Virus record (IMG/VR): IMGVR_UViG_3300006903_000022
Location: 1-29,466 of that record
DNA from: a virus
Length of the DNA: 29,466 bases
Direction: 5' to 3' (one strand)
The translations under genes and the position numbers were made by a program. Positions within the stretch are counted from its first letter, which is position 1. Each line of letters opens with the position of its first letter. The notes beneath the pieces were generated by a model that was given only the letters and a program-made list of their open reading frames with translations, made no database searches and was not told the origin of the DNA. This document shows positions 3,258-27,725 of this stretch, piece by piece.

Positions 3258-3581
3258 CTAACGCCCCTGCCACTGTCTCCACGGAAAACACGACCAGTAT
3301 TCTTGCGCGCGGGCAACAGCCTGTAACTCAAAGCTGGCTACGCAGCCTTGTCGGTCCGCCGTGACCAGCACGATGATGGGCGTCTGCGGCAGATCGCCGA
3401 TTCGGAACCAGCCCGTCCGCGCCCACTCTTGCGTGTCCGCGACGCGGACGATGTCCGACACGTACCTGCAGTTGACGTCGGACCCAGCCGACCAGCATGC
3501 CGTCGGCCATACTTTCCTCCCAGCGCCGTTCCCGGCGCAGGCCGCGAGCGCGACCGCGAGCATCCACCAGTGCCGCCTCAT
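3258..3581 (-). CDS. Putative small lipoprotein
   Basis: The real gene is 107 aa from ATG at 3581; the same frame stays open upstream, but the ATGA overlap with the preceding stop fixes this start. The N-terminus MRRHWWMLAVALAAC is a signal peptide with a LAAC lipobox. The mature part has five further cysteines (TACWSAGSDVNC, QGC, WSC), suggesting disulphides outside the cytoplasm. The middle (IVVLVTADRQGC-like strand pattern) looks beta. This is one of several small exported proteins in this genome. No family is recognised, and a surface role such as superinfection exclusion is only a guess. Confidence 0.68.
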   Translation of the reverse strand: MRRHWWMLAVALAACAGNGAGRKVWPTACWSAGSDVNCRYVSDIVRVADTQEWARTGWFRIGDLPQTPIIVLVTADRQGCVASFELQAVARAQEYWSCFPWRQWQGR

Positions 3582-4875: not shown

Positions 4876-5093
4876 TTATAATAGTAAAGAGTGAACAAAC
4901 CCTCCGCACCCGGCCAACCATTACAAACCGGATGAGCGCGAAATCTACCATGCAGATTTAATAACCGAAGTAATTCCATTGCGTCCTTCTCTTTTTCGAA
5001 AGACTCTTGCTGTACTTTACGACGCCCAACATTCCGCGCGCTCAAACGAATTGCATTATAGCGCTCTTCGGCTAGCGTTAGCGCGTCAGCCAT
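4869..5093 (-). CDS. Hypothetical protein, AT-rich small gene
   Basis: 74 aa. The helical N-terminus reads ADALTLAEERYNAIRLSARN, then a charged middle (QQESFEKEKDAMELLRLLNL), then a short Cys-containing C-terminus ending LFTLYYYKC. The start overlaps the phosphatase stop by 16 nt; a second ATG-like context lies nearby. Codons such as TTA, ATA, AAA and AAT are much more frequent than in neighbours, and the DNA is visibly AT-richer. This suggests recent transfer into the space between portal and head morphogenesis genes. No family is recognised. Confidence 0.55.
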   Translation of the reverse strand: MADALTLAEERYNAIRLSARNVGRRKVQQESFEKEKDAMELLRLLNLHGRFRAHPVCNGWPGAEGLFTLYYYKC

Positions 5094-5569
5094 TCCATCA
5101 CCGATTGTTTGAGGTAAGGATGTGGTTGAATCTGCTCACGCCGCTGTCTCACTAGGAACTCATACTTGTCCCATGCTTCAGAGGCTTCCAAACGTCGCTG
5201 GACCGGATCCGTCGCGTGCTGGACCTGCGACCATCCCGACTCCAGGATCAGCGAGAAGATCGCGAACGTGCTAGCGCGCGAGACGCCGGCGGCGCAGTGC
5301 ACGAGGAGGCGCTTGCCCGCGGCGCGGCACTTCAGGAACCAGTCCGCGTACGCGTCGAGCTTCGCCAGCGGGATCGGCGCACCGTCGTCCTGGTTCATGC
5401 GCAGGTACGGCACGCGGGCCTTCATGTCGGCTGGCCAGTTGTCCGTGGTGGGCGTGGCGTTGAACACCGCCGTGATGCCCTCGTGGTCCAGCGTCTGCCA
5501 GTCGAAGCCTGCGCGCTGGTCGCCGACCCAGAGCCAACTCGTCACCTTGTCCATCGGCGCGGTGCTCAT
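5078..5569 (-). CDS. Dual-specificity protein phosphatase (Cys-based)
   Basis: 163 aa. The active-site P-loop is HCAAGVSRAS at residues 91-100, matching HCxxGxxR with nucleophile C92 and phosphate-binding R98. DDGAP at 61-65 provides the usual general-acid Asp. The N-terminal strand WLWVGDQRA is the start seen in DSP-type phosphatases. The expected reaction is hydrolysis of phospho-Tyr/Ser/Thr, though lipid or RNA phosphates are possible in this superfamily. The start overlaps the upstream stop as ATGA. It sits between two AT-richer small genes, away from any kinase. A phage DSP among head genes is unusual; the target cannot be read from the sequence. Confidence 0.9.
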   Translation of the reverse strand: MSTAPMDKVTSWLWVGDQRAGFDWQTLDHEGITAVFNATPTTDNWPADMKARVPYLRMNQDDGAPIPLAKLDAYADWFLKCRAAGKRLLVHCAAGVSRASTFAIFSLILESGWSQVQHATDPVQRRLEASEAWDKYEFLVRQRREQIQPHPYLKQSVMEWLTR

Positions 5570-6377: not shown

Positions 6378-7850
6378 TCAATTCCCTCCCTGTCCTGGTT
6401 GACCTTGCGCCGGCGCGGCCTTCGGTTGGATGGCCGGCTCGGCTCCCGCTGGCGATGCACCAGTGCGCTGCGCGCCTGGGCTCCCCTTGTCCGCCGGGAC
6501 TGGGCTAGGCGGCGTCGGCGTCGGCGTCGGCGGCATAATGTCGTTCGGGTTGCCTGGCTCCTTCGGCACGAGGTAGATGTTCCGCTCGTCGTCCACCTCG
6601 ACCAACTGCGTCGGGTCGCCCCCGATCGGGGTCAGCGCCGCTGCTGCCTGCGCAGTCTTGAGATTCGCCTCAGCCTGCTCCAGCGCGGTCAGCTCGAACA
6701 ACTCCGGCCACACCACCTCGTACTCACCGTCGCCTGCTGGCTGCGGCAGACCGTTGTTGTCGATCATCCTGTCGATGAAGGCCCGCACCAGCTGCGGCTC
6801 CGCGAAGTGCTCCTGACGCTCGTTGATGGCGCCGAAGTACGTCGCCTCGTCGGTGCTCGACGCCAGCTCCCCGGACTCGTTCCCGAAGAGGATGCGGCGC
6901 GGGATGCCGGAGCCAACCGCGATGAGCGCGAAGTAGAACTCGGCGATGTCCTTCACCGGGCTGACGGTGTTCTGCAGCCACGACATCTCGACGCCCTGAC
7001 CGATGAACTGCCGACGCAGGTCGTGGATCATCTCGGCCTGGGCCTCCTTAAGGCCGGCCAGCTGCTCCGGCGTGGTCGTCGCCAGCGGGTCGATCTTGCC
7101 CTGCAGGATCCGCACGACCGCCTGCCAGTAACTCTCGCCGGTGGACGCGGAGATTTTGTCCAGGTCGAAGATACGGTTCAGTGACCGCTCCAGACGAGGC
7201 CGCCCGTAAACGCGATCGTCCGCGTCCTCCGCGACGTGAAGCACGTGCGAGGCGTCGACCAGCAACCCAGGCGCGGTGAAGCCGACCTGGTCCGTCGGCG
7301 TCAGTGAGTACTGTGCTGGCAGGCCGAACCGCTCACTGCTTGCATCGTCCACCAGCGCGACGATCTGCGCGTGCTTCTCGTCGTAGGCGCGCACGTAGAG
7401 AATGTCGTCGGGCCCCGAGAGGCGCCGCATCGGCTGCTTCATCGCGTTGTTGTCCGTGCCGCGCGTCCCGATGAGCAGGACGCCGTACCGCCCGATGCCG
7501 CTGCGGCGATCGACGACCTCGAACTCCGACCACAAGTTGATCCTGTCGGCCAGCTTCGTGAACGCCTTGGTGAACGTCGTGTCCTTCGCCTTGTCCAGCT
7601 CCACGATGTCCGGCGGTGTGCGCCAGGTTGTCTTGGGCTTCGCGTCGACGATCCGGCCCGCGATCTCGTTGCGGATGTAGTAGCTCTCGAAGTCGGCGAA
7701 CTTGGGCAGCCTGACGTAGCCCGCCGTCGCGTACGTGTCGCGCTTGCCACCATACTGGATCCCAGCGCGGGCAAGCATGCGCATGCGGCCCAGGAACGAC
7801 GCCGCCTGCTCAAGCTGGTGCGCGATCGTGGTTTTCTTTTTAGCGGCCAT
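6378..7850 (-). CDS. Portal protein (DUF1073 / anti-CBASS-portal superfamily type)
   Basis: 490 aa, the usual portal size. Features: LPKFADFESYYIRNEIAGRI near residues 48-67, RYGVLLIG at 121-128, VLHVAEDADDRVYGRPRLE around 203-221, and GIPRRILFGNESGELASS at 315-332 with the following Asp/Tyr and Gln. The last set is the hallmark of DUF1073 (PF06381) portals. The dodecameric portal forms the DNA channel at one capsid vertex and docks the terminase. The C-terminus is a low-complexity Pro/Thr/Ala tail (PPTPTPTPPSP) beyond about residue 440. The start overlaps the preceding gene by 11 nt, with no clear ribosome site. It is about 6 kb downstream of terL because accessory genes intervene. Confidence 0.92.
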   Translation of the reverse strand: MAAKKKTTIAHQLEQAASFLGRMRMLARAGIQYGGKRDTYATAGYVRLPKFADFESYYIRNEIAGRIVDAKPKTTWRTPPDIVELDKAKDTTFTKAFTKLADRINLWSEFEVVDRRSGIGRYGVLLIGTRGTDNNAMKQPMRRLSGPDDILYVRAYDEKHAQIVALVDDASSERFGLPAQYSLTPTDQVGFTAPGLLVDASHVLHVAEDADDRVYGRPRLERSLNRIFDLDKISASTGESYWQAVVRILQGKIDPLATTTPEQLAGLKEAQAEMIHDLRRQFIGQGVEMSWLQNTVSPVKDIAEFYFALIAVGSGIPRRILFGNESGELASSTDEATYFGAINERQEHFAEPQLVRAFIDRMIDNNGLPQPAGDGEYEVVWPELFELTALEQAEANLKTAQAAAALTPIGGDPTQLVEVDDERNIYLVPKEPGNPNDIMPPTPTPTPPSPVPADKGSPGAQRTGASPAGAEPAIQPKAAPAQGQPGQGGN

Positions 7851-8085
7851 GGACGCTCAGCGCTGGAAGAGTGACGTGCGCCACCGAGACCCAGTTGCGG
7901 AAGAGCCCCTGGCCCCTGGCGCAGAAGAACGGTTCGCCCTCGAGCGGGCTGTACCAGTGATCACGCTGGCACGTCTCGCAGCTGTTGTAGTGCTCCGCCC
8001 ACGAGCGATAGACGGATCCAACGTCGACGTGGTACCGCGCGTTGACCGACCGCGGAGCGCTTTGCAGCAGCGGCGCGTGGGTCAT
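7840..8085 (-). CDS. Hypothetical protein with CxxC...C motif
   Basis: 81 aa from ATG at 8085, coupled as ATGA to the coiled-coil membrane protein gene and overlapping the portal start by 11 nt. The centre reads SCETCQRDHWYSPLEGEPFF followed by CARGQGLFRNWV: C-x2-C, a His, then a later C, which could bind zinc. No membrane segment. Function unknown. Confidence 0.55.
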   Translation of the reverse strand: MTHAPLLQSAPRSVNARYHVDVGSVYRSWAEHYNSCETCQRDHWYSPLEGEPFFCARGQGLFRNWVSVAHVTLPALSVHGR

Positions 8086-8684
8086 CTATGCGGCGTCGCG
8101 TACCCAGCCACGTACGCCACGGCGACCCAGGGCGCCATGCTCACGAGCTGATGCCCTAGCCCCGGGTTGAGCCGCTTCCTGGCCTCGTCCAGCTGCGAGA
8201 TCAGGTCGACGTTGCTCCGCTGGAAGTCGAGCAGCCTGGCGTGCAGCTGCTTGATCGTCGAGCTGTCGCTCTGGATGACCGAGTCCGCGGCCGCGAGCGC
8301 TTGCTGCAGCGAGAGCACCTGTCGCCCGTGCGCTGCCTCGAGCGAGTCCACGGCTGCCTTGAGCACCGCGTTCGTGTCGACGAGCGAGTGCAGCTGATCG
8401 TGGAAGGCCTCTCTGCCACGATCGGCCGCGATCGCCGCGCTCTTGAACACCTGTTCGCGCTGCCTGAGCCTCGTGGTCGAGTCCTGCCACGCCTTGACGA
8501 TGGAGTCTGCCTGCGCAACACGGACCGAGTCGTCGTGCCGGTGCTGCGCGATGGTGCGCGCCAGCTCAGCCTGCGCGACGGCCGCAACTTCCTTCTGGTG
8601 AACGTACAAGTTGAACACGCCGATGCCCGCCGCGACGGCGAGGATGATGCCAGGTAGACCGTTGAGGAACTTGAGCAGCTTCAT
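8082..8684 (-). CDS. Membrane-anchored periplasmic coiled-coil protein (i-spanin-like)
   Basis: 200 aa. Residues 10-27 (LPGIILAVAAGIGVFNLYV) form an N-terminal membrane anchor. Residues about 30-170 are a long charged helix rich in Ala, Gln, Asp and Ser, with heptad character. The last 25 residues are hydrophobic (SMAPWVAVAYVAGY). This N-anchor plus coiled-coil layout is that of Rz-type inner-membrane spanins, although the second hydrophobic end and the greater length are not typical. No embedded Rz1 lipoprotein frame was found. ATG at 8684 has GAGAGG upstream after a 52-nt gap with a possible promoter. A lysis role is plausible but unproven. Confidence 0.7.
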   Translation of the reverse strand: MKLLKFLNGLPGIILAVAAGIGVFNLYVHQKEVAAVAQAELARTIAQHRHDDSVRVAQADSIVKAWQDSTTRLRQREQVFKSAAIAADRGREAFHDQLHSLVDTNAVLKAAVDSLEAAHGRQVLSLQQALAAADSVIQSDSSTIKQLHARLLDFQRSNVDLISQLDEARKRLNPGLGHQLVSMAPWVAVAYVAGYATPHR

Positions 8685-8736
8685 TTGGGAAGGCCTCTCT
8701 TGGACCAGAACAATCTACTCTGGTGACGGCGAGAGT
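8685..8736 (-). promoter_or_regulatory. Intergenic gap with inverted repeat, possible promoter/operator
   Basis: One of the few true gaps. It contains a perfect 6-bp inverted repeat, ACCAGA (8704-8709) and TCTGGT (8719-8724), with a 9-bp spacer. On the minus strand the spacer holds TAGATT, a possible -10-like box. TCTGGT resembles the ACTGGT that follows the -10 of the two stronger promoters in this window. It could be an operator overlapping a promoter for the coiled-coil gene. The evidence is pattern only. Confidence 0.3.
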
Positions 8737-9027
8737 CTAGCTATCGTCCTCGGCCTGAATCTCGGCAAGCCCCGTGAGGAAGCGTTCGGCCCGAGATGCC
8801 CGTCGTTGCTGGGTTGGCGTCGGCCGCCTGGGCCGCTTCCTAGCAGCGGCGAGCGCGACCATGCGCTGGTCTATGGCGTCCACGCCAGGCACTTCCGCCT
8901 CTGGCGCGTCCAGCACAACCGGGTCGCGCCGCAGCAGCTCCTCGACGGCCCACCTGAGCGCCTTTGTTGGGTGTGGCTGATCCTGGGCCGCGTCGAGCAG
9001 CGCGACCCACAGCGCTCGCCTACTCAT
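8737..9027 (-). CDS. Hypothetical basic protein, 96 aa
   Basis: ATG at 9027 overlaps the DUF6527 stop by 8 nt. The N-terminal helix reads SRRALWVALLDAAQDQ, followed by HPTKALRWAVEELLRRDPVV. The C-terminal half is Arg-rich (AAARKRPRRPTPTQQRRASR) and ends acidic (AEIQAEDDS). It has no cysteine and no membrane segment. The basic tract could contact nucleic acid. No family recognised. Confidence 0.55.
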   Translation of the reverse strand: MSRRALWVALLDAAQDQPHPTKALRWAVEELLRRDPVVLDAPEAEVPGVDAIDQRMVALAAARKRPRRPTPTQQRRASRAERFLTGLAEIQAEDDS

Positions 9028-9436
9028 GCCAGCAACTCGTTGGAACTGGATCGAGCGATACAGTCGAATCCGCGCATAGTTCGATCTTCCCTTGCTTCAG
9101 GAACATGTGGAATACGTATGGTCGATGGGCCTTCGCCAAAAACGACGGTGTCAACGTTGGCGCCGAGACGTTTCCGTCCCAGCCCCAAACGTTCGCCTTG
9201 TCCTCCGCGATCTCCTGCGGCGTTGCGTCGAGACGATGACCAAAGCTTCCAAGCCTGAACGCCTGGCGCTCGTAGTGGTGGACCATGCGCGGGTGCACCT
9301 CGCATACGTGCTGACACGGTTGACCAGGTGGATCACCCGGGCACGGCGACAGGATCAGGTACCACACCGCCCCATCCTCGCCACGCTTCTCTTCGCGTGC
9401 CACGCCGATGTGCAGCAGCTGGACCGTGAAGCTCAC
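9020..9436 (-). CDS. DUF6527-like protein
   Basis: 138 aa from GTG at 9436, set by the GTGA overlap with the zinc-ribbon gene; the frame is open further upstream but that part is a shadow. The signature VWGWDGNVSAPTLTPSF at about 83-99, followed by a HMFLKQGKIELCADST-type end, matches DUF6527. That small family is frequent in phages and often mislabelled. Three His-containing clusters (HVCEVHPRMVHHYE, FGHRLD, YVFHMF) and cysteines suggest a metal site. The molecular function of the family is not established as far as I know. The start with the strand SFTVQLLHIGV fits a compact beta fold. Confidence 0.68.
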   Translation of the reverse strand: MSFTVQLLHIGVAREEKRGEDGAVWYLILSPCPGDPPGQPCQHVCEVHPRMVHHYERQAFRLGSFGHRLDATPQEIAEDKANVWGWDGNVSAPTLTPSFLAKAHRPYVFHMFLKQGKIELCADSTVSLDPVPTSCWHE

Positions 9437-9720
9437 CGCGGGTACACGCGCTCGTGCTCGGTCTCGTCCCCGCACGTCTCGCACCACGCCTTCGTGAGCC
9501 CGCCGGCGTGTTGCTTCGGCGCCGTGTGCCGCGCCTTGCACGTCGTGCACTCCCACTCCACCTCGGCGAAGCCGTCGACCTGCGATCGGATCTGTCCCAT
9601 GCCGTTGTCCCTCCGGTAGCGTTCCAGCTCGGCCAGCTTCTCGACCCGCTTGTCCTCTACCTCGCCGCGGTTCTGGCCAACGAGGATGCCGTCCTTCGTG
9701 ACCCGCCGCGTGCCCTTCAA
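9433..9720 (-). CDS. Zinc-ribbon hypothetical protein (TTG start)
   Basis: 95 aa. The start codon is TTG at 9720, overlapping the upstream TGA as TTGA, with GAGGG three bases before it; an internal ATG (MGQIRSQ) is the alternative. The C-terminal half has ECTTCKARHTAPKQ and WCETCGDETEHERV: two CxxC knuckles about 22 residues apart, a classical zinc ribbon. The N-terminal half is charged helix (VEDKRVEKLAELERYRRDN). It could be a nucleic-acid-binding or adaptor protein. It is coupled to the DUF6527 gene. Confidence 0.6.
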   Translation of the reverse strand: MKGTRRVTKDGILVGQNRGEVEDKRVEKLAELERYRRDNGMGQIRSQVDGFAEVEWECTTCKARHTAPKQHAGGLTKAWCETCGDETEHERVYPR

Positions 9721-10040
9721 GGACCCTCTTCAACTGGATGGACCTCGTACCACCCATGCTCGGGATCGAAGCGCGAGATGCCGCGCACCGTCACGATCTC
9801 GCCGATCCTCGGTCGCCGACATGGCAGCTTGGGGATGCACTCGGCCACGATGAAGCTCGTGTCGCCCATCGTGAGGCTTCGCAGTCTGATGTGTAGGTCG
9901 CCATCGTCCTCGAGCCGCATGTAGTCGACCGCGCCCAGCACCTGCACGTGCGTGTGCTTGTTGTTCCCGTGCGCCATCGTGGTGACCGAGACTGGCCAAT
10001 AGTACCGCGTCAGCAGCCAGAATAACAGGACGAGCCTCAT
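9717..10040 (-). CDS. Exported OB-fold-like protein (HGWYEVHPV family)
   Basis: 107 aa with a hydrophobic N-terminus (MRLVLLFWLLTRYYW) that may be a signal peptide or anchor. The core has DDGDLHIRLRS, then GEIVTVRGISRFDPEHGWYE followed by VHPVEE. The paired DGDxHIxL and HGWxExHPV motifs occur in a family of small bacterial and phage beta-barrel proteins of OB-fold type whose role is not well defined. Coupled as ATGA to dCMP deaminase upstream and as TTGA to the zinc-ribbon gene downstream. Whether it is secreted depends on the N-terminus, which is short for a signal peptide. Confidence 0.6.
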   Translation of the reverse strand: MRLVLLFWLLTRYYWPVSVTTMAHGNNKHTHVQVLGAVDYMRLEDDGDLHIRLRSLTMGDTSFIVAECIPKLPCRRPRIGEIVTVRGISRFDPEHGWYEVHPVEEGP

Positions 10041-10531
10041 ACCGCCTTCTGCTTCGGCGCTTCACCGGCCACGAACCGACACGCGACGCCGGCCTCAACG
10101 AACAGCTGCTTCACATCTCTGAAGTCGTCCGCGAAGGTCGGATCGTTCCAGTCGGGCTCGACAGCGACCACCTCGACGATGCCGGCCTGCACGATGGCCC
10201 GGGCGCAGTCCATGCACGGGTACCACATCAGGTAGATTCGACACCCCTCGGTCGAGACCCCAGACCGCGCCGCGTTGTAGATCGCGTTGCGCTCCGAGTG
10301 CTCCGTCCACCTGTACTTAGCGGGCCGCTGGTGTCTGGCTTCGACGTCGTCAGCGACGCCGCGCGGGAAGCCGTTGTACCCCGTCGCGCGAATCTCGCGG
10401 TTCGGGCCCACGATCACGCAGCCGACCTTCCGGCTGCGGTCCTTGCTCCACGAAGCGACCTCGCGGGCCAACCCCATGAAGCGGTCGTCCCAGTGCTTCG
10501 AGAACGTTGCTGGTTCTGCGAGTACCGTCAT
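10037..10531 (-). CDS. Deoxycytidylate deaminase
   Basis: 164 aa from ATG at 10531, chosen because GGAGG stands 5 nt upstream; the longer open frame is not supported. Zinc and catalytic motifs are complete: TEHSERNAIYNAA with H78 and E80, and PCMDCARAIV with C106 and C109. GCVIVGPNREIRATGYNGFP is the typical substrate-side strand of dCMP/ComE-type deaminases. It converts dCMP to dUMP, the substrate of the ThyX encoded at 15653-16363, so the two form a dTMP supply route. No allosteric-site insertion is obvious. It follows the JAMM gene after a 49-nt gap. Confidence 0.93.
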   Translation of the reverse strand: MTVLAEPATFSKHWDDRFMGLAREVASWSKDRSRKVGCVIVGPNREIRATGYNGFPRGVADDVEARHQRPAKYRWTEHSERNAIYNAARSGVSTEGCRIYLMWYPCMDCARAIVQAGIVEVVAVEPDWNDPTFADDFRDVKQLFVEAGVACRFVAGEAPKQKAV

Positions 10532-10580
10532 TTGAGCCTCCAGTGTCGATAGGCGGTCGAGGAGGGAAGCGAAGCCAAGA

Positions 10581-11138
10581 TTATTGGTGGGTGGATCCAG
10601 CAGGCGCATTGGATCCAGAATCCGGTCGAACATGGGTGCATTCCAACGCGAGGGAACCTGAGTCGCCTTCGGGATCGAACGTGCAGATCGGCGCGCGCTC
10701 CGGCACCGTCCCGCGCGCGAGGACAGCGATCTTGTTCTGACCACACACGATGATGCTGATGCCCAGCTTGCTGTTCACGAACGCCTCAAGGTCACGCCAC
10801 GACTCACCGCACACGCCGCTCGGGTGGCTGTGCGCGTAGCCGATCAGAGAGTCCACCCCCGAGACGTCGACGCAGTAGATCGGTGGTGCGATACTGTCCC
10901 GCGCTGCCTGCGACGGCTTGATCTCCGCGAGGACCACGAACTTCAACTGTAGCACGCCGTCGACGTCGTGGCCATAGGCGCACGTCAAGAACTCCGTCTT
11001 GAACTCCCGGTACATCAGCGACCAGCTCTTGAGCGCCGCCGACCCGATGCGGATCTGTTGCGGCCCCTGCCGTCGCGGCTCCTGGATGGACAGCGCCAGG
11101 CCCATCAGTCCCATGATAACGAAGGCGGCGCGCACCAT
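10581..11138 (-). CDS. Exported JAMM/MPN-domain metallopeptidase
   Basis: 185 aa. The start ATG at 11138 shares one base with the upstream TGA (TGATG). N-terminus: MVRAAFVIMGLMGLALSIQE, a plausible signal peptide. The JAMM motif is intact: E49 in KTEFLTCAYG, H103 and H105 in YAHSHPSGVCGESWRDLEAF with exactly seven residues to S113, then D116. That is the zinc isopeptidase/peptidase signature of JAB/MPN proteins. Phage JAB domains usually sit in cytoplasmic or tail-tip proteins; a stand-alone form with a signal peptide next to other exported proteins is odd. The substrate could be an envelope or conjugated protein. The C-terminal 40 residues are Gly/Ser-rich and probably disordered. Confidence 0.82.
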   Translation of the reverse strand: MVRAAFVIMGLMGLALSIQEPRRQGPQQIRIGSAALKSWSLMYREFKTEFLTCAYGHDVDGVLQLKFVVLAEIKPSQAARDSIAPPIYCVDVSGVDSLIGYAHSHPSGVCGESWRDLEAFVNSKLGISIIVCGQNKIAVLARGTVPERAPICTFDPEGDSGSLALECTHVRPDSGSNAPAGSTHQ

Positions 11139-11770
11139 CAGCAGCTCTTCCCGCCGAACACTGCCCGCAGCAGATACCGCGCCCAGTGCCACCGCAGCCG
11201 CGACCGCACTTCCCTGTTCAGGATAGAGTCGTCCGCGACGCCGGGACGCCCGTCGCGGAGCGCCAGCAAAGCGACGCCGAAGCGATCCGCGAACACCTCT
11301 GGGTCGCCCCGCGCCCACGTCGGCAGCGTGTCGCCGGCCTCGCGCACCAGACCATGCGGCCAGAGGCAGACCTGGAAGCGGTGACCAAACTCATGCGCGA
11401 TCACGCCGTTCGGCACCATCAGCTCGACCGGGTGGCAGAGCCGCGCTGGAGGGCACCACTTCCGCATGCGACGATAGGCGCCTGTGTCTGGGTGAAGGTA
11501 GATCGTGTTCTCGCCATCGTTGTACCACCCGACTTGCACGAAGGGTTGCCCGCCATACATGAACACCTGCTTGCCGAATGGGAGCGTGTCCACCGCCACC
11601 TCGCCCGCGATCGCCCGCAGCGTGTCGATCCACCCGGTCCCGATCTTCGGCAGGTTGGCCACCACCAACTCCGGTCCTGGCCGCGACTGTTTGCAGCCGA
11701 TGACGCCGAGCCCGTACAGGATACAAAGGACGCCAAGGCCGCGCAGGACCCACTTCGCTCGCGTCGTCAT
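11138..11770 (-). CDS. Zinc-metallopeptidase-like lipoprotein (HEFGH)
   Basis: 210 aa from ATG at 11770 (ATGA with the upstream stop). N-terminus: WVLRGLGVLCILYGLGVIGC with lipobox GVIGC and lipid Cys26. HEFGH at 126-130 is the zincin helix with catalytic Glu127, and PEVFADRFG at 157-165 supplies a third ligand (E158) and an Asp, as in the HExxH...E..AD arrangement of IrrE/ImmA-like and related proteins. Four or more extra cysteines (KWCPPARLC, VCLW, KSC) suggest disulphides. It is expected to be membrane-tethered outside the cytoplasm and to cleave peptides. It directly precedes the JAMM gene, so two peptidases are co-translated. Confidence 0.83.
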   Translation of the reverse strand: MTTRAKWVLRGLGVLCILYGLGVIGCKQSRPGPELVVANLPKIGTGWIDTLRAIAGEVAVDTLPFGKQVFMYGGQPFVQVGWYNDGENTIYLHPDTGAYRRMRKWCPPARLCHPVELMVPNGVIAHEFGHRFQVCLWPHGLVREAGDTLPTWARGDPEVFADRFGVALLALRDGRPGVADDSILNREVRSRLRWHWARYLLRAVFGGKSC

Positions 11771-11943
11771 GGCACGGAGTCCGACGGCGCTGAGTCTGAG
11801 ACGCACCTGATGCCGCCCTTGACGTAGACGACATGCGAGCCGGCTGGGCAGAGACCCTTCTGCCCCTGCGGGAGATAGAACGGCTGCTGGCACGCGACCC
11901 ACGCGACCAGCGCGACGCCAACGACGATCACCCAGCGGATCAC
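11767..11943 (-). CDS. Small lipoprotein, 58 aa
   Basis: GTG at 11943 overlaps the upstream TGA as GTGA, and the stop overlaps the next ATG as ATGA. N-terminus: VIRWVIVVGVALVAWVAC with a WVAC lipobox. The mature part is short (about 40 residues) with two further cysteines: GLCPAGSHVVYVKGGIRC, probably one disulphide, then an acidic Ser/Pro tail (SDSAPSDSVP). Its size and o-spanin-like lipoprotein layout are worth noting near a transglycosylase, but no Pro-rich o-spanin pattern is clear. Function unknown. Confidence 0.62.
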   Translation of the reverse strand: MIRWVIVVGVALVAWVACQQPFYLPQGQKGLCPAGSHVVYVKGGIRCVSDSAPSDSVP

Positions 11944-12527
11944 TTGCCCACCGCCTTCCTGATCGCGGCGACCCGCGCCGAGTCGGCGAGCGGCAGAACG
12001 TCGAAGTCGGACTGGAACGCGTCGACGATGTCGTAGTTGCAGTACGAGCCGTTGATGGCCTGGCGCTGCTTGCACTCCTGCAGCCGCTGCACTGGAATCT
12101 TGTGCCACAGGTAGACGCCGCGCTGGCCCTTGTACAGCCCGAACGTGCCGTAGGCGGGCGTGAAGGCGTAGACGATGCGGTCGGTCGAGTCGTTCGCCAG
12201 CTTCAACTGGAACGTTACCGTCCCGTCGCAGCCGTGGCGTAGGATCATGATCAGCCCGCACGGGTCGTCGTACGCCCAGTACTCCTCCATCTCGACGATG
12301 CCGCCGACGAGCGTGCCGTCCGCCTTCTGCGCGTTGAGCGTCGCCGGCCCTGCCCACGCGATCGAGTCCGGCTCCTGCGGCTCCATCGGCACGAGCTTCG
12401 CGGTCGGGCTCTGGATGCACCCGGTGAGGAACACGGACGTGATGAGCGCCACCCAGAAGGCTCCAACTGCGAGCCAGCCCCAGTGGCGCTCCGTGAACAC
12501 CTCGAACTTGATCAATCCCTCACGCAT
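11940..12527 (-). CDS. Putative lipoprotein, 195 aa
   Basis: ATG at 12527 with GGAGAAGG about 6 nt upstream. A polar start (MREGLIKFEVFTERHWG) precedes the hydrophobic segment WLAVGAFWVALITSVFLTGC with lipobox LTGC, so the signal peptide is long but typical. The mature domain is mixed beta (GTVTFQLKLANDSTDRIVYA), with four cysteines. A proline-rich stretch (PTAKLVPMEPQEP) follows the lipobox. It is the first gene after a gap and leads the exported cluster of lipoprotein, HEFGH lipoprotein and JAMM. No family recognised. Confidence 0.68.
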   Translation of the reverse strand: MREGLIKFEVFTERHWGWLAVGAFWVALITSVFLTGCIQSPTAKLVPMEPQEPDSIAWAGPATLNAQKADGTLVGGIVEMEEYWAYDDPCGLIMILRHGCDGTVTFQLKLANDSTDRIVYAFTPAYGTFGLYKGQRGVYLWHKIPVQRLQECKQRQAINGSYCNYDIVDAFQSDFDVLPLADSARVAAIRKAVGK

Positions 12528-12543
12528 GTCGCTACCTTCTCCG

Positions 12544-12578
12544 ATCTATACCGTCGGCTCCAACCCTTTCACCGACGG
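12544..12578 (-). promoter_or_regulatory. Intergenic hairpin and TATAGAT box before exported cluster
   Basis: The 74-nt gap between the transglycosylase stop and the 12527 ATG holds a perfect 7-bp inverted repeat, CCGTCGG (12551-12557) and CCGACGG (12572-12578), with a 14-bp loop. Immediately downstream on the minus strand is TATAGAT (12544-12550), a good -10-like box. The hairpin could end upstream transcription or be an operator, but no T-tract follows it. Pattern-based only. Confidence 0.35.
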
Positions 12579-12601
12579 CCAAGGCGGCGCCGAACGTCCG
12601 G

Positions 12602-13222
12602 CTATTGCAAGGGTCCCGCCGATGCCACGTCCCGACGCCAGCTTGTGCCGAGCGCCATCTGATCCCGAGCTGGACTCAGATCCGTCCTGTACAGCCGCTG
12701 CATCACCGCCAGCACGTACGCGTCGCCTGCCTTGATCTTCCTGGCGCAGCGCTCGTAGCTGTCGTTCTTGGTGCACCACGCGCCCGCGTACATCCGCAGG
12801 GCGTCGTTCCAGTTCCCACGCTGCTCGAAATACTCGACCGCGATGTGCGCGCCGACGCAGGCGTTGCGTCTCCGCGCCACCAGCGAGTCGAGCCCGCACT
12901 CGATCGGGAACGAATCGCGCCACATGCGAGGCAGGACCTGCATCAGACCGAGCGCGCCCGAGACTGGGTGCCGCGCCGTCGAGTCGCCTGACCAGTTCTC
13001 CACGTGACTGACCGCGATCGCGAGCGCCGTCGGCATCCCTGCTTCTCTGGCCGCCTGCGCGACGATCGAGTCGCGCTCCTGCGACGGGCCCGCGAACAGC
13101 GTGACGGCTGATTGTGTGGTATCGACTGGCCCGACGATCTTCGCCGAGACCGCGCCTGCGAGGAAGATGGCGCCGGCAGCGATAGCCGCCAGCATCGTGG
13201 CCCTCCACGCGGGCCGGCTCAC
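12602..13222 (-). CDS. Exported lytic transglycosylase (SLT/goose-lysozyme-like domain)
   Basis: 206 aa from GTG at 13222 (GTGA overlap). The N-terminal segment TMLAAIAAGAIFLAGAVSA is a signal peptide or signal anchor. The catalytic region reads AIAVSHVENWSG with Glu75, then HPVSGALGLMQVLPRMW with the GLMQ strand-helix of SLT transglycosylases, and a later MYAGAWC near the substrate cleft. It cleaves peptidoglycan glycan chains between MurNAc and GlcNAc. A Sec-type start argues for action from the periplasm during lysis, like signal-arrest endolysins, rather than packaging in the tail. It is the clearest lysis candidate here. Four cysteines suggest disulphides. Confidence 0.86.
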   Translation of the reverse strand: MSRPAWRATMLAAIAAGAIFLAGAVSAKIVGPVDTTQSAVTLFAGPSQERDSIVAQAAREAGMPTALAIAVSHVENWSGDSTARHPVSGALGLMQVLPRMWRDSFPIECGLDSLVARRRNACVGAHIAVEYFEQRGNWNDALRMYAGAWCTKNDSYERCARKIKAGDAYVLAVMQRLYRTDLSPARDQMALGTSWRRDVASAGPLQ

Positions 13223-13605
13223 GCCGTCACCAGGGTGCGCGGCGACGACTTGACGACGTTGAGCTCAAGCCACTCCTCCACGAGCGACTGCATCGCTGGA
13301 CGGCAGTGATCGAACGCCTCCACGACGGCCCAGACCTCTTCCTGCGTCAGCTGGATCCCGTGGGCCATGCGGAAGAGACTCGCGACGTTGTACTCCTCGT
13401 TGCCGTGGCGCGCCAGCCAGCGGTTCATCTCACCGTACGGCCCGAACGCCATGGCGAAGAAGCAGCTGTTCCAGTCGCCCGCCTTGGAGTGCTCCAGCGC
13501 GACGTGCGCGCGCAGCACGCGCTCCCGTCCCAGCTGCTCCAGGACGCGCGCGACCAGGTGCGTGTTGATCGTCTTGCCCTCGTTGTCCCCGTATGCGATG
13601 TTCAT
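13219..13605 (-). CDS. Conserved-looking hypothetical protein, 128 aa
   Basis: The start is placed at ATG 13605, because GGAGGG lies 7 nt upstream; ATG 13611 is only one base from it and the longer frame to 13659 overlaps the promoter. The protein is helical and soluble: INTHLVARVLEQLGRERVLR, then ALEHSKAGDWNSCFFAMAFG with two adjacent Phe and one Cys, then HGIQLTQEEVWAVVEAFDHC. No known catalytic motif. It has its own promoter of the same type as terS and is coupled as GTGA to the transglycosylase, so it may head a lysis or envelope operon. Confidence 0.66.
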   Translation of the reverse strand: MNIAYGDNEGKTINTHLVARVLEQLGRERVLRAHVALEHSKAGDWNSCFFAMAFGPYGEMNRWLARHGNEEYNVASLFRMAHGIQLTQEEVWAVVEAFDHCRPAMQSLVEEWLELNVVKSSPRTLVTA

Positions 13606-13649
13606 TGCCATACCCTCCAACGGTGGAAGAGACACAACCATTAGGTACC

Positions 13650-13678
13650 AGTCTAACACCTTGTCCGAAGCAAGCTAC
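13650..13678 (-). promoter_or_regulatory. Promoter P13650 (GTAGCT-N17-TAGACT)
   Basis: On the minus strand GTAGCT (13673-13678) and TAGACT (13650-13655) are separated by 17 bp. The -10 is preceded by GTGT, giving an extended TGnTAGACT, and followed by GGTACC. The same layout occurs before terS. It lies just after the terL stop and upstream of the 13605 start, in a gap with no gene. Expression would cover the 128-aa gene, transglycosylase and exported cluster. Confidence 0.55.
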
Positions 13679-13680
13679 TG

Positions 13681-15252
13681 CTACCCAAACATGATCTTCC
13701 GCGCCGGCTGCTGGTGGATGCCGAGATGGCGATGCAACGCTTGGACGAAAGCATCGTTGACGTCCAAGCCCGCGCCGCCCATCTGCAGCTGCTCGGCCGT
13801 CACGCGGAGGAGCCCCTGCTGCTCTGCCAAGAGCAGCCGCTCGTAGACCGTGCTCCTGATCCAGACGCGGCCCGCCGAGACGTGCGGCTGCACGCCGCTC
13901 GCCCTGGCCAGCTTGTCGCCCTTGACTGGCACCTCTTTCGCCGTGATCCCGTAGGCCTTCAGCTGCTGCACGGCACTCTTGCCCGACGCCTTCTCCTCCA
14001 CGTAGTGCGGCCCTGGGAGGCTCCGCAGCCACTCCACCAACTTCGGGAACTCGACCCACCTGAAGTCGACGTCGTCCACGTACACGTCGAAGTCGTCTGG
14101 CTTATTCGGCTTGCTCGGACCGCGGAAGCTCCGCACCCTGGCGCTCGCGCTGTTCCGCTCGTCCGCCGTCAGCGCCGTGTCCCAGTCGTCCCCGCCATTG
14201 TACGCGTCGGCTGGCAGCTCGTCGTATGTGCGGTTCTTGAACCAGTCGGCCTGCCAGAAGTCGCCGCTCGCCCGCATCGGCCGCTGCTGCCTCTGCGCCG
14301 CGACGACGTAGGGCGTGGACTGCTGCTGGCGCTCCTTGACCTCGGCCTCCGAGAACCGCGACGGCGCGAGAATCTGCCCGACCTTGCGCCAGTCCGGCTC
14401 GAGCGTGCACGTCGGCGGTAGACCCTTCGGCCCCGTCCATCTGCCCAACGGCTCCTCGGAGTGGATCTCGTCCAGGCAGACAACGTGCCAGTGCAGCGCG
14501 TGCTCGGTCAGCTCTTGCCGCAGCAGGTAGTCGATCGGATCATCCATCCCCAGCCGCTGCATCACGAAGAACATCTTGGCGCCGGGCTCGCGCGCGCGCA
14601 GCCAGTCGTTCTCCCACCACGTCTCGAACTTCTGTCTCCAAGCGTAGCTGAACGCGTGGGCCGGATCGATCGGGTCGTCCACGCCGCCGAGATGGAAGCC
14701 CTTGCCGATCGCGCTCCCTCCCATACCCGTCGCCCACATCTCGCCCTGGCGTCCAGTCCCGTCGGTGTGCACCGTCTGCCACCTGGCGCGCGCTTGCGCC
14801 TCAGGTGCCAGCACGCCGCCTGACCGCACGTAGTTCTCGCGCGCCGCCTCCGACAACTGCCATGCCAGATTCGCCGCGTGCGACGCCAGCGCGAACGTCT
14901 TGGCTGGGTTATGATGCAGGAAATAGCCGGGCAGCAGCCGCGAGAACACCTCCGACTTCAGGTAGCGCGGAGGCGCCAGGATCATGACGTACTTGAGTTT
15001 GCCAGCGAGCAGACGATCCACCACGTCGAGCAGCTTCGGCACGTGCTCGAACTGCAGCATGTCGGGCTTCATGTGGGAGACGTAGTCGCGGAACGTCTTG
15101 TAGACCTTGGCGCCGATGCCTCGATGCGCCATCTCCTGCGCGATCTTGTCCGCCCTGACGCTCGCGGGTGGCGGCAGCCCGCGGCGCTTCAGCTCGGCCG
15201 CGAGCATGTTGAGGCGGCGCTGCTCTGGACTCTCTGGTTCTCTGGCTGGCAT
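13681..15252 (-). CDS. terL: Terminase large subunit
   Basis: 523 aa with both halves of a TerL. ATPase: a deviant Walker A, ILAPPRYLKSEVFSRLLPG around 91-109, where the P-loop ends K99-S100; Walker B at HLGGVDDPIDP (187-197). Nuclease: YVDDVDFRW gives the first metal-binding Asp set, PHYVEEKASGKSAVQQLKAY the middle Glu, and GLDVNDAFVQAL the last Asp. The APPRxxKSE motif fits the PBSX/TIGR01630-like group. It packages DNA into the procapsid through the portal. No clear ribosome site precedes ATG 15252; a 12-nt gap follows the upstream gene. About 5 kb of small genes separate it from terS. Confidence 0.95.
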   Translation of the reverse strand: MPAREPESPEQRRLNMLAAELKRRGLPPPASVRADKIAQEMAHRGIGAKVYKTFRDYVSHMKPDMLQFEHVPKLLDVVDRLLAGKLKYVMILAPPRYLKSEVFSRLLPGYFLHHNPAKTFALASHAANLAWQLSEAARENYVRSGGVLAPEAQARARWQTVHTDGTGRQGEMWATGMGGSAIGKGFHLGGVDDPIDPAHAFSYAWRQKFETWWENDWLRAREPGAKMFFVMQRLGMDDPIDYLLRQELTEHALHWHVVCLDEIHSEEPLGRWTGPKGLPPTCTLEPDWRKVGQILAPSRFSEAEVKERQQQSTPYVVAAQRQQRPMRASGDFWQADWFKNRTYDELPADAYNGGDDWDTALTADERNSASARVRSFRGPSKPNKPDDFDVYVDDVDFRWVEFPKLVEWLRSLPGPHYVEEKASGKSAVQQLKAYGITAKEVPVKGDKLARASGVQPHVSAGRVWIRSTVYERLLLAEQQGLLRVTAEQLQMGGAGLDVNDAFVQALHRHLGIHQQPARKIMFG

Positions 15253-15264
15253 GCTGCTGGAAAC

Positions 15265-15474
15265 TTAACGCGGAGGGGCGAGCGCGGCTACCAACTCGAC
15301 GAGGTGATGATACGTGACCATGTGACCGAAGCCGTCGCTGCGATAGAGGCACCAGAAGCGCCCGCTGTGCGACACCTTGAGCCCATGTTCCTTGGCCATC
15401 GCCTTCGCGCTCGCCAGGCTCACCGAGATGCCTCGCCGACGAAGCTTGGCGGCCATCTTCTGCAGCTCGGTCAC
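15265..15474 (-). CDS. Hypothetical basic protein, 69 aa
   Basis: GTG at 15474 overlaps the upstream TGA as GTGA. The N-terminal helix ELQKMAAKLRRRGISVSLAS is strongly basic, followed by a strand segment (KVSHSGRFWCLYRSDGFG) and a helical end (YHHLVELVAALAPPR). It could bind DNA or terminase given its site just before terL, but this is only positional. No known domain. Confidence 0.52.
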   Translation of the reverse strand: MTELQKMAAKLRRRGISVSLASAKAMAKEHGLKVSHSGRFWCLYRSDGFGHMVTYHHLVELVAALAPPR

Positions 15475-15656
15475 CGAGTCGTGTCCAAGTTGACGATATG
15501 GCGCGTCCAGAACTGAAAGCAGTCCAGGTTGCAGAAGTCGAACTTGCGGTGACCAACACGCGGGCCGCGAAGCGTGACGAAGACGGCCGTCGGGTGCATC
15601 GCCGGGATCACGTCGCGGCACCGATCACACCTGACCTCGGACGTCGACGTCTTCAC
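15471..15656 (-). CDS. Small zinc-finger protein, 61 aa
   Basis: GTG at 15656 overlaps the thyX stop as GTGA. Motif: VRCDRCRDVIPAMHP, then KFDFCNLDCFQFWTRHI. Two Cys pairs (CxxC and CxxxC) about 30 residues apart plus an aromatic C-terminal helix resemble the treble-clef or TRASH/MYM-type zinc fingers. These often bind metal or nucleic acid. Too short for the usual gene caller but bounded on both sides by coupled junctions. Confidence 0.58.
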   Translation of the reverse strand: MKTSTSEVRCDRCRDVIPAMHPTAVFVTLRGPRVGHRKFDFCNLDCFQFWTRHIVNLDTTR

Positions 15657-16363
15657 GCGGCGCCCACGAACAGCTGCCACGTCCTGGGGAACTGATGGGC
15701 AATGAGCTTCCCCATGGCCCCGGCGTATTGCCTGACCTCCCACTGCGCCCCCTGGTCCATCCTGAGCGTCAGGAACGCGAGCCAGTTGCGCAGATTCGCT
15801 GATGCCCGCATCCGACTGTACTGCGCGACCGGGATCACGAGCCGCGCCAGCTCGCGCGCCAAGCCCATCTGCAGCAGCTCGACGTACGCGTCGCGCGACG
15901 TCTGCAAGCCCTGCTCCAGCAGGCCCTGGATCAGCGACGCCTTGCTCCCGTCGATGCCCTCGGCCGAGCCCTGCTTGTTCACCGTGGACTGCGCGCCCGC
16001 CATAATGCGCTCCAGGCTCGGGATGTAGACCAGGTCGGGCAGCGCCGTGTACCGCGCGCTGAGCTCGTTGTACGACTGCGTCCTGTGCCGGTGCCACTCG
16101 CGGAACACGAAGATCGGCGCCTGCACCTCGACGATCATCCCAGCCATCTCGAACGGCGTCAGGTGCTTGTGCTCATACAGGAACCGCAGCAGGCGCTCGT
16201 CGCCAGGCTGCTCCGCGGTGCCCCAGCCCTGGAACCCCTTGGCCGTGGACATCCGCGCGGCCTCGATGATTCGCTCGTCGCTGCCCCAGGCCTCCACGAG
16301 CCTGACGTAGCCGTGATCGAGGATCGGCTCTGCGATACGGTACGGCGACGCGTCAGTCTCCAC
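15653..16363 (-). CDS. thyX: Flavin-dependent thymidylate synthase
   Basis: 236 aa, GTG at 16363 overlapping the upstream gene by 11 nt. The ThyX signature RHRTQSYNELSARY stands at residues 92-105, matching RHRxxSxNExSxRY, preceded by HKHLTPFEMAG and FVFREW. The C-terminal region has SRMRASANLRNWLAFLTLRM with the substrate Arg. It makes dTMP from dUMP using methylene-tetrahydrofolate and FAD/NADPH and works as a homotetramer. Together with dCMP deaminase (10037-10531) it gives the phage its own dTMP route. No ThyA is present. No oddities except a short polar N-terminal extension (METDASPY). Confidence 0.96.
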   Translation of the reverse strand: METDASPYRIAEPILDHGYVRLVEAWGSDERIIEAARMSTAKGFQGWGTAEQPGDERLLRFLYEHKHLTPFEMAGMIVEVQAPIFVFREWHRHRTQSYNELSARYTALPDLVYIPSLERIMAGAQSTVNKQGSAEGIDGSKASLIQGLLEQGLQTSRDAYVELLQMGLARELARLVIPVAQYSRMRASANLRNWLAFLTLRMDQGAQWEVRQYAGAMGKLIAHQFPRTWQLFVGAA

Positions 16364-16637
16364 GCTGCCCCGTCGCGGCGACGTAGTCCTGCACGCTGGT
16401 GTAGCACCCAGACAGGTGAACGATGTCGCCCACCCTGATGTCCGGCAGCGGCGTCTTGAGGCAGAAGTACGTCCACGTGCAGCGCGTGTTGTCGAACGCG
16501 GACGCCGAGCAGAAGTCCTCGCGCTCGATCATGATGGCGCCGTTCGGCCGCGTCTCGACGTAGCGCCCGATCTGCGTGCTGCTCCACGGCTGATCGCATG
16601 CCGCCACGAGCAACAGTGCCGCGATGATGTACCTCAT
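16353..16637 (-). CDS. Small Cys-rich lipoprotein
   Basis: 94 aa from ATG at 16637 (ATGA overlap). N-terminus MRYIIAALLLVAAC is a short signal peptide with a VAAC lipobox. The mature domain has four more cysteines (EDFCSASAFDNTRC, WTYFC, LSGC), consistent with two disulphides, and a strand GDIVHLSGCY. It lies between the MazG-like and thyX genes, among nucleotide enzymes, which is odd for an exported protein. Function unknown. Confidence 0.63.
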   Translation of the reverse strand: MRYIIAALLLVAACDQPWSSTQIGRYVETRPNGAIMIEREDFCSASAFDNTRCTWTYFCLKTPLPDIRVGDIVHLSGCYTSVQDYVAATGQRGD

Positions 16638-24265: not shown

Positions 24266-24624
24266 GGCCTGACCACATACTCGCGCGGGGCGATCTGTGT
24301 CAGCTGGAACACCAACCGCGTCCGCGCGAACGACGTCAGCTGCTGCTTCCACGCCTGCACAGCCTCGGCCGTCTCTGGCAATTGGCCATGCTCGTCGAGC
24401 CACTTGGCCACCGCCACCGCCTTGTCAAACTCGCGCACGTGCCACACCGCCAACCCAGCAGCGCGGTGCGTGACGGTGTACCCGGGCCCGACTGGCGTGT
24501 GGTGACTGATCGCCAGGTGCACGGCGTAGTGGCCAATCACGGCCTCGGGCTCCACGGCGACTTGATCCTCGCCGCAGCGACAGATCGTCGTCCAGTCCTT
24601 GTCCACCAGCATCTCCGTCGTCAT
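24262..24624 (-). CDS. Hypothetical protein with N-terminal Cys/His cluster
   Basis: 120 aa from ATG at 24624 (ATGA with the SbcDC stop). TTICRCGEDQVAVEPEAVIG followed by HYAVHLAISHH gives a C-x-C...H-x3-H pattern resembling a short zinc finger. The rest is helical: EFDKAVAVAKWLDEHGQLPE and AVQAWKQQLTSFART. Coupled to endonuclease VII downstream. It could be a DNA-binding accessory of the recombination set; no family recognised. Confidence 0.6.
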   Translation of the reverse strand: MTTEMLVDKDWTTICRCGEDQVAVEPEAVIGHYAVHLAISHHTPVGPGYTVTHRAAGLAVWHVREFDKAVAVAKWLDEHGQLPETAEAVQAWKQQLTSFARTRLVFQLTQIAPREYVVRP

Positions 24625-27600: not shown

Positions 27601-27725
27601 AGTGACGCGCGCAGCACGCCCAGCGTGCGTCGCAGGCGATCGTTCTCGAGACCGTCACCGTGCGCGAACGCCGCCCACGGGTGCGCATGCAGATCCGAGA
27701 TGACTACGACGCGACGAAAGCTCAC
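24621..27725 (-). CDS. SbcD-SbcC fusion: Mre11-type nuclease joined to Rad50-type ATPase
   Basis: 1034 aa from GTG at 27725 (GTGA with recA). N-terminal metallophosphoesterase: ISDLHAH (D11, H13), GGDLVH (D57), GNHD (N91-H92), GDLHH (H197), and VPGSPEHHNF; this is the SbcD/Mre11/T4 gp47 nuclease. After about residue 300 comes an SMC-type ATPase: Walker A SNGAGKST ending at 395, with an inserted RDYPS before it, a coiled-coil arm, zinc hook CPSCG at 688-692, the arm back, signature LSGGQ at 919-923, Walker B VLVLDE at 951-956, and ISHDPQ near the end. Normally SbcC (gp46) and SbcD (gp47) are separate genes. One open frame covers both, with no stop or internal start needed. It processes double-strand ends and hairpins, probably with RecA next door. 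Coupled both ways. Confidence 0.93.
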   Translation of the reverse strand: MSFRRVVVISDLHAHPWAAFAHGDGLENDRLRRTLGVLRASLQRAQELDCPWVFGGDLVHTAGYALNVVLSALAEEFGRFPDVAKLAVWGNHDARGVGGKIVLEQTIWAALSRSVSNLMVLDPSLSQPIVERGGITFSGVGAQPRPDLLRAPLQSDVGVYHATVRGSHGPNGYIFPYGIEADDLLSRHKVSIAGDLHHPQCISRAEFGAHILLVPGSPEHHNFGDALMHGWWIVNVDPPAAAITPSGSPEFRTVETAADVHADGNFYRVLTRSVGEQLPENATVVAPTPTTIENRTALRGLTGEQILAGWIAANPPSDVILTTEGAAAMKAELLALGRQLLSLDDVGQLSNVRLTWLGLRNFCSYAEADFPVLDGTWLVLGKGRDYPSNGAGKSTLFESLFWLLFGRTTKGLTGDEVIRWGAKDCSVHAIFENSYGGVLEVKRTRGEASRLEVYEGDDSIPWEATSVNEMTEKLNRHLGVTPELFQALGYFSQERVLLFASATDGERKEMLADLIGLSAYQSASAAAQKRIEQLKVDLAANDGLQRGTEEHLIAARVTMEQMQQRFLQWNEEHEQRRLAALAALDTFDASVQHTFEQLAAEAVKQLSQTNEQNTRVMREHLAQAEIELSKPYPPVASAADLRSARKDAEEARMAVIRFTTQIAETTRQLETAHRKLDEIVKLTRDGTCPSCGQQIQPEHRERCEAPIRNEIQVLNDLAAKLQQSKADAVETAAAWKLTADSCEHGVAAAEAIARWSDQRQAAKDGLQQLEEEAARISEVAKQHVTKVLDDKRAELKRAIALVDRETNPHRQSEAVAVGSVKEAEARLEKRKQEQLSMALQAALHDYWRVGFSKQGIQSLLMDEVAGAFNAARGAIFPALTQGVYDVQFSTLSRTKGGDQRERTEFKVYEHGLLVPYEALSGGQRRRIDVGVMLTLVKAISTWMHVPGALGVLVLDEVFGFLDASGAEGLMEALRDVQAVVPTIYAISHDPQLQALFSGTVMIEQDDFGVSRIVTGGERNGGLDPSEMATVEANQ

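What the first reader, a model, noticed from the sequence alone, without database searches (positions are those of the whole stretch)
10581..12527. Run of four exported proteins with two metallopeptidases
Consecutive coupled genes encode a lipoprotein, a tiny lipoprotein, a HEFGH zinc-peptidase lipoprotein and a JAMM peptidase with a signal peptide. The next gene upstream is an exported lytic transglycosylase. JAMM enzymes normally work in the cytoplasm or at the tail tip; an exported pair of different zinc peptidase classes in a phage, between terminase and portal, is unusual. It could be an envelope-degrading lysis set, a superinfection or competitor-exclusion system, or virion-borne entry proteases.
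Basis: partly seen in the sequence, partly recalled or inferred. Interest (0 to 1): 0.72.

Follow-up and report, generated by a model that had tools for sequence, protein, structure and literature searches.

The report
Phage operon with two exported zinc peptidases
A soil-type bacterial virus carries, right after its cell-wall-cutting enzyme, a tightly coupled run of genes for exported proteins that includes two different zinc-peptidase-like enzymes; they most likely help it attack or remodel the host's cell envelope, but this has not been tested and neither enzyme could be placed in a known family.

Summary
On the minus strand, 12527-10581, four genes overlap by 1-4 nt: a lipoprotein (195 aa), a 58-aa lipoprotein with an atypical lipobox, a HEFGH...EVFAD zincin-like lipoprotein (210 aa) and a JAMM-motif protein with a signal peptide (185 aa). 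They follow an exported SLT-type lytic transglycosylase, between terminase and portal. Export is supported by signal sequences, a 2.5-3.8-fold cysteine excess with even cysteine counts in all seven exported proteins, and a lipoprotein excess (3/55 genes against 1/1079 in 85 related phage loci). No relative of either peptidase was found in IMG/VR, INPHARED or PLSDB beyond one near-identical contig. Another environmental phage encodes a small exported HEFGH protein beside its tail gene and small membrane proteins. A phage-derived exported metalloprotease-lipoprotein pair that boosts lysis is published in Listeria. Best reading: an accessory envelope-disruption (lysis) module, about 40%; exclusion is the main rival. 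Structure prediction was uninformative.

The parts
12602..13222 (-). Exported lytic transglycosylase (SLT/lysozyme-like), probable endolysin; A/G-rich N-terminal hydrophobic segment (cleavable signal or signal-arrest-release type), HVEN...GALGLMQ active-site region, 4 cysteines in the mature part
   Evidence: only recognised murein hydrolase in the readable 46 kb
11940..12527 (-). Lipoprotein LP195 (lipobox LTGC, 4 further cysteines), function unknown; very weak Rz-like spanin PHROG (E 0.08)
11767..11943 (-). 58-aa probable lipoprotein (WVAC, atypical lipobox), GTG start overlapping the previous stop by 4 nt; size fits an o-spanin but no family match
11138..11770 (-). Lipoprotein with zincin motif HEFGH...27 aa...EVFAD (gluzincin-like), 4 cysteines besides the lipid cysteine
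10581..11138 (-). JAMM/JAB-motif protein with signal peptide (E48, H103-S-H105-P, S113xxD116), 6 cysteines in the mature part; start codon overlaps the previous stop (TGATG)

Best explanation
An accessory envelope-disruption module of the phage's late operon. The exported transglycosylase (probable endolysin) cuts the glycan strands. The coupled lipoproteins sit in the outer or inner membrane facing the periplasm. The lipid-anchored HEFGH peptidase and the soluble periplasmic JAMM peptidase cut protein or peptide links of the envelope (periplasmic or outer-membrane proteins, or murein peptide cross-links), so that the cell bursts more completely or sooner. Shown here: gene order, coupling, motifs, signal sequences, cysteine and lipoprotein statistics, SLT identity. 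Inferred: zinc binding, catalysis, substrates, timing, and that the effect is lysis.
For: Four-gene overlap series directly after the only recognised murein hydrolase, same strand, no terminator-like site of that strand between 12602 and 10581. All products exported: cysteines 3.1% in the mature exported proteins against 1.2% in the rest (P 4e-5; 0.8% and P 8e-8 when CxxC proteins are left out), even number in 7 of 7. Lipoproteins 3/55 genes against 1/1079 in 85 relatives. JAMM and HExxH...E motifs beyond chance. Another phage (L203/L204) has a small exported HEFGH...E.FAD protein between its tail gene and small membrane proteins. Published analogue: phage-derived secreted metzincin Mtz plus lipoprotein Tim, also found in listerial prophages downstream of holin and lysin, raises sensitivity to phage lysis and virion release about 5-fold (PMC8235301).
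Against: No holin or confirmed spanin is adjacent, and the rest of the tail/late region lies outside the available contigs, so the true lysis cassette could be elsewhere. No homologue gives context for the JAMM protein. In the relatives L005, L020 and L021 this same terminase-portal interval holds glycosyl- and methyltransferase-type cargo, so the genes may be cargo unrelated to lysis. Structure models were too poor to test the active sites.
Confidence: 0.4

Rival explanations
1. Superinfection or competitor exclusion: the exported lipoproteins and peptidases alter or shave envelope proteins, including receptors, so that other phages cannot inject.
For: Phage-encoded lipoproteins are an established exclusion class (Ltp-type, PMC3952083). 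The operon sits in an interval that holds variable cargo in relatives. The phage has further lipoproteins at 16353-16637 and 3258-3581.
Against: Known exclusion lipoproteins are not peptidases (general knowledge); two peptidases coupled to an endolysin-like gene fits a late lytic role better. No prophage or lysogeny genes were recognised in the window.
Confidence: 0.25
2. Exported JAB toxin or virulence-type factor with lipoprotein partner(s), comparable to secreted Tox-JAB-2 of phages or Tox-JAB-1 with lipobox-bearing Imm65; the zincin or lipoproteins would be partner or antidote.
For: Zhang et al. 2012 (PMC3482391) describe secreted phage JAB proteins and a lipoprotein immunity family next to a JAB toxin. 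DUF4329 proteins fetched here are exported and cysteine-paired.
Against: The JAMM protein does not match the DUF4329 profile (rank 703 among decoys; no Pfam hit), has no RHS or other delivery domain, and no immunity-family match was found for the lipoproteins.
Confidence: 0.1
3. Ordinary periplasmic housekeeping or host-physiology cargo (protein quality control or nutrient-type function) without a role in lysis or exclusion.
For: Periplasmic M48-type metallopeptidases and cargo genes are common in bacteria and phages in general; the interval is a cargo slot in relatives.
Against: Four coupled exported genes directly behind an exported murein hydrolase is a more specific arrangement than random cargo.
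Confidence: 0.15
4. Virion-borne entry proteases or tail-associated peptidases.
For: JAMM domains occur at siphophage tail tips (general knowledge), and the transglycosylase resembles 'lytic tail proteins' of Wifcevirus.
Against: Signal peptides, lipoboxes and cysteine pairing point to Sec export in the producing cell, and the genes lie away from the tail genes (tape measure and tail genes are in L013).
Confidence: 0.05

Closest known systems
Mtz-Tim pair of Listeria phage origin (PMC8235301)
   Same: Exported zinc metalloprotease encoded with a lipoprotein; in prophages downstream of holin and lysin; enhances phage lysis.
   Different: Mtz is a metzincin in a Gram-positive host; here HEFGHRFQVCL lacks the HExxHxxGxxH metzincin signature, there is a second peptidase of the JAMM class, and the host is probably diderm. 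No sequence relation was tested or claimed.
Tox-JAB-2 / DUF4329 (PF14220), including secreted forms in Xanthomonas phage OP1 (PMC3482391)
   Same: Exported JAB-motif protein with H[ST]H...S..D and several cysteines; can be phage-borne.
   Different: No profile match; different spacing around the histidines (HxHP, exact x7); no toxin architecture.
Prok-JAB (PF14464) / MEROPS M67 JAMM peptidases
   Same: HSHP...S..D motif with exact spacing, possible catalytic Glu at the right distance; ranked first by a local JAB profile.
   Different: Exported; outside the motif no recognisable similarity; below detection in Pfam.
Small exported HEFGH...E.FAD protein of another environmental phage (L203/L204; G211/G212)
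   Same: Signal peptide, single small zincin-motif domain, 37% identity over 52 aa around the motif; the two phages share two other genes.
   Different: Found by a motif search, so the similarity is weak proof of homology; no lipobox, no JAMM neighbour, encoded on the opposite strand to its neighbours.
Phage lysis cassettes with exported endolysin and spanins
   Same: Exported muralytic enzyme followed by small lipoprotein(s).
   Different: No holin next door, no convincing spanin match, plus two peptidases.

Membership tests
JAMM/JAB metallopeptidase (M67) | HxHx7SxxD metal-binding motif | tested here: met
   HSHPSGVCGESWRD, exact spacing; never seen in 300 shuffled proteomes
JAMM/JAB metallopeptidase (M67) | Upstream catalytic Glu | tested here: inconclusive
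   E48 lies seven residues before G55 as in ExCGLLxG, read from sequence; no structure to confirm
JAMM/JAB metallopeptidase (M67) | Profile similarity to JAB families | tested here: inconclusive
   Local JAB profile ranks it first among ~1150 sequences (10.1 bits), but no match to Pfam, PHROGs or NCBIfam and none to PF14464
JAMM/JAB metallopeptidase (M67) | JAB fold | tested here: inconclusive
   Single-sequence AlphaFold2 model, pLDDT 49; Foldseek hits meaningless
Tox-JAB-2 / DUF4329 (PF14220) | Match to the family profile | tested here: not met
   No Pfam hit; rank 703 among decoys with a profile of four family members
HExxH zincin (gluzincin type) | HExxH plus downstream third-ligand Glu | tested here: met
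   HEFGH, then EVFAD 27 residues later; 0.03 expected per shuffled proteome for the general pattern
HExxH zincin (gluzincin type) | Membership of M48 or M78 (ImmA/IrrE) | tested here: not met
   Local M48 and M78 profiles score it no better than motif-keeping shuffles; no Pfam hit over cut-off
Metzincin (as Mtz) | HExxHxxGxxH | tested here: not met
   HEFGHRFQVCL: Q and L in place of G and H
SLT-type lytic transglycosylase (12602-13222) | SLT/lysozyme-like domain with catalytic Glu | tested here: met
   PHROG transglycosylase E 5e-6, tblastn E 1e-7, HVEN...GALGLMQ; Pfam SLT E 0.008, below its cut-off
Phage lysis cassette | Adjacent holin and spanins | tested here: not met
   No holin match nearby; LP195 only E 0.08 to a spanin PHROG; i-spanin-like coiled coil at 8082-8684 is 2 kb away
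Sec-exported / lipoprotein | Signal peptide or lipobox by a dedicated predictor | not tested
   SignalP unavailable; hydropathy, lipobox, cysteine parity and enrichment used instead

The most novel reading that the evidence does not exclude
A new phage lysis strategy in diderm hosts in which a periplasmic JAMM enzyme and a lipid-anchored zincin, working with an exported transglycosylase, cut murein cross-links or outer-membrane tethers by proteolysis, in place of or in addition to spanins; it would be the first JAMM enzyme shown to act on the bacterial envelope.
Probability: 0.12. Interest if true: 0.75.

Novelty: new variant of a known kind. Interest (0 to 1): 0.45.

Why it matters
How phages of little-studied diderm soil bacteria breach the outer membrane is poorly known. 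A compact, translationally coupled set of an exported murein hydrolase, two lipoproteins and two unrelated zinc peptidases gives five small proteins that can be expressed and mutated one by one. It would test whether proteolysis of the envelope is part of phage lysis or exclusion, and extend JAMM enzymes to a periplasmic role.

Tried and rejected
Single-sequence AlphaFold2 for both peptidases gave pLDDT 49 and 41 and meaningless Foldseek matches for the JAMM model. Searches for relatives of the peptidases in phages, plasmids and viral contigs found none besides G001; the HEFGH protein had none in GTDB contigs; the marginal JAMM hits among 398 Pseudomonadota genomes that were inspected carry no JAMM motif. 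The first HEFGH DNA scan began with CAC and so missed the window's own CAT codon; repeated. PF14464 and PF14220 gave no membership. M48 and M78 were rejected as families for the HEFGH protein. Gemmatimonadota host: only a weak dipeptide hint (DS observed/expected 1.14 in the phage, 1.06 in Gemmatirosa, 0.69 in Pseudomonadota); a phylum-wide search there was not possible. In one search I made randomised rows of the two proteins to serve as masks for a pattern search; I dropped the idea and did not use them. Accessions tried for Xanthomonas phages OP1, Xp10 and Xop411 are not in the collection, so a direct comparison with the OP1 protein was not made.

Full report
What was checked. The window is a whole 29,466-bp linear IMG/VR virus record, 65% GC. 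A second record, G001 (IMGVR_UViG_3300050514_000091, 34.7 kb), is 99.98% identical over 15.5 kb and extends the phage towards its tail genes, so about 46 kb of it can be read. All genes called lie on the minus strand.

From 12527 down to 10581 four genes overlap by 4, 4 and 1 nt: LP195 (LTGC lipobox), a 58-aa protein (WVAC, atypical lipobox), a 210-aa lipoprotein with HEFGH and EVFAD, and a 185-aa protein with a signal peptide and HSHPSGVCGESWRD. Upstream, after a 74-nt gap, is an exported SLT transglycosylase with its HVEN...GALGLMQ region; it is the only murein hydrolase recognised by Pfam or PHROGs in the readable genome. Terminase (13681-15252) and portal (6378-7850) flank the stretch. No sigma-70-like promoter was found in 8000-16000, and no terminator-like site of the minus strand falls between 12602 and 10581.

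Export. SignalP was not available. Three signs agree. First, the N-terminal hydrophobic segments and lipoboxes. Second, the mature parts of the seven exported proteins hold 3.1% cysteine against 1.2% in the remaining phage proteins (P 4e-5; against 0.8% and P 8e-8 when CxxC proteins are left out), and in all seven the number of cysteines, not counting the lipid cysteine, is even, as expected of disulphide-bonded periplasmic proteins. Third, a strict lipoprotein rule finds 3 of 55 genes here and 1 of 1,079 in 85 phage loci with related terminases.

The peptidase motifs. HxHx7SxxD never arose in 300 shuffled proteomes, and HExxH...ExxAD arose 0.03 times per proteome. A profile of 19 Prok-JAB sequences fetched from Pseudomonadota ranks the JAMM protein first among about 1,150 sequences including 1,000 shuffles (10.1 bits, next 4.3), although only the motif region aligns and no Pfam, PHROG or NCBIfam model matches. 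The HEFGH protein could not be assigned to M48 or M78: local profiles score it like motif-keeping shuffles. Single-sequence AlphaFold2 models had pLDDT 49 and 41 and decide nothing. So the zinc sites are predicted from motifs, not shown.

Relatives. Neither peptidase, nor LP195, has a relative other than G001 found in IMG/VR, and none has one in INPHARED; the peptidases have none in PLSDB, and the HEFGH protein none in GTDB contigs. These collection scans mostly see close relatives, so distant ones may exist. The nearest terminase relatives (48-54% identity) share the terminase, and L005, L020 and L021 also the portal; in those three the interval between terminase and portal carries glycosyl- and methyltransferase-type genes, with no exported peptidases. 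The stretch is therefore a variable cargo slot. A motif scan found one informative case: two contigs of another 65%-GC phage (L203/L204) encode a 166-aa exported protein with HEFGH...E.FAD next to a 1,274-aa tail-type protein, a DUF5675 gene and small membrane proteins. It is 37% identical over 52 residues to the window's HEFGH protein, and that phage shares two other genes with this one. Because it was picked by motif, homology is only suggested.

Known comparisons. Zhang et al. 2012 (PMC3482391) describe two JAB clades in polymorphic toxins and state that Tox-JAB-2 versions in Xanthomonas phages are secreted; four DUF4329 proteins fetched here are indeed exported-looking and cysteine-rich. 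Exported phage JAMM proteins are therefore not unheard of, though the window protein is not a DUF4329 member by the test made. Boichis et al. 2021 (PMC8235301) show that a phage-derived secreted metzincin with a lipoprotein makes Listeria more sensitive to phage lysis and raises virion release about five-fold, and that such pairs lie downstream of holin and lysin in prophages. This is the nearest functional parallel; the window protein lacks the metzincin signature, so it is a parallel of kind and not of family.

Judgement. The most likely role is an accessory envelope-disruption module acting with the exported transglycosylase (0.40), ahead of exclusion (0.25), neutral cargo (0.15), a JAB-type toxin with partner (0.10) and virion entry (0.05). 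Shown: anatomy, coupling, motifs, export signs, absence of close relatives. Inferred: metal binding, catalysis, substrates, timing, and the diderm host (a Gemmatimonadota-like host is only hinted at). The missing tail end of the genome means a classical lysis cassette elsewhere cannot be excluded.

Noticed in passing
window 16353-16637 (-) and 3258-3581 (-): Two further small lipoproteins with canonical lipoboxes (VAAC, LAAC), each with four other cysteines; lipoproteins are unusually frequent in this phage.
   Followed up: partly
window 8082-8684 (-): 200-aa protein with N-terminal membrane segment and long coiled-coil-like body, topologically like an i-spanin; no family match.
   Followed up: no
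window 5078-5569 (-): Dual-specificity (tyrosine) phosphatase (Pfam DSPc E 1.5e-12) encoded among phage head genes.
   Followed up: no
window 24621-27725 (-): SbcD-like metallophosphoesterase and SbcC-like subunit read as one 1034-aa protein.
   Followed up: no
L005, L020, L021, between terminase and portal: In relatives this interval holds glycosyltransferases, methyltransferases and other cargo, so it is a variable slot; in this phage glycan-type genes sit elsewhere (L013 9.0-14.6 kb).
   Followed up: partly
L203 2484-2984 (+) / L204 8954-9454 (-): Another environmental phage with a small exported HEFGH...E.FAD protein beside a tail-type gene, a DUF5675 gene and small membrane proteins.
   Followed up: partly
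window, gene not mapped individually (probably 9020-9436, -): One window or L013 protein matches DUF6527 (PF20137, E 9e-6), a family that I recall also occurs beside bacterial ubiquitin-like systems; possibly coincidental.
   Followed up: no
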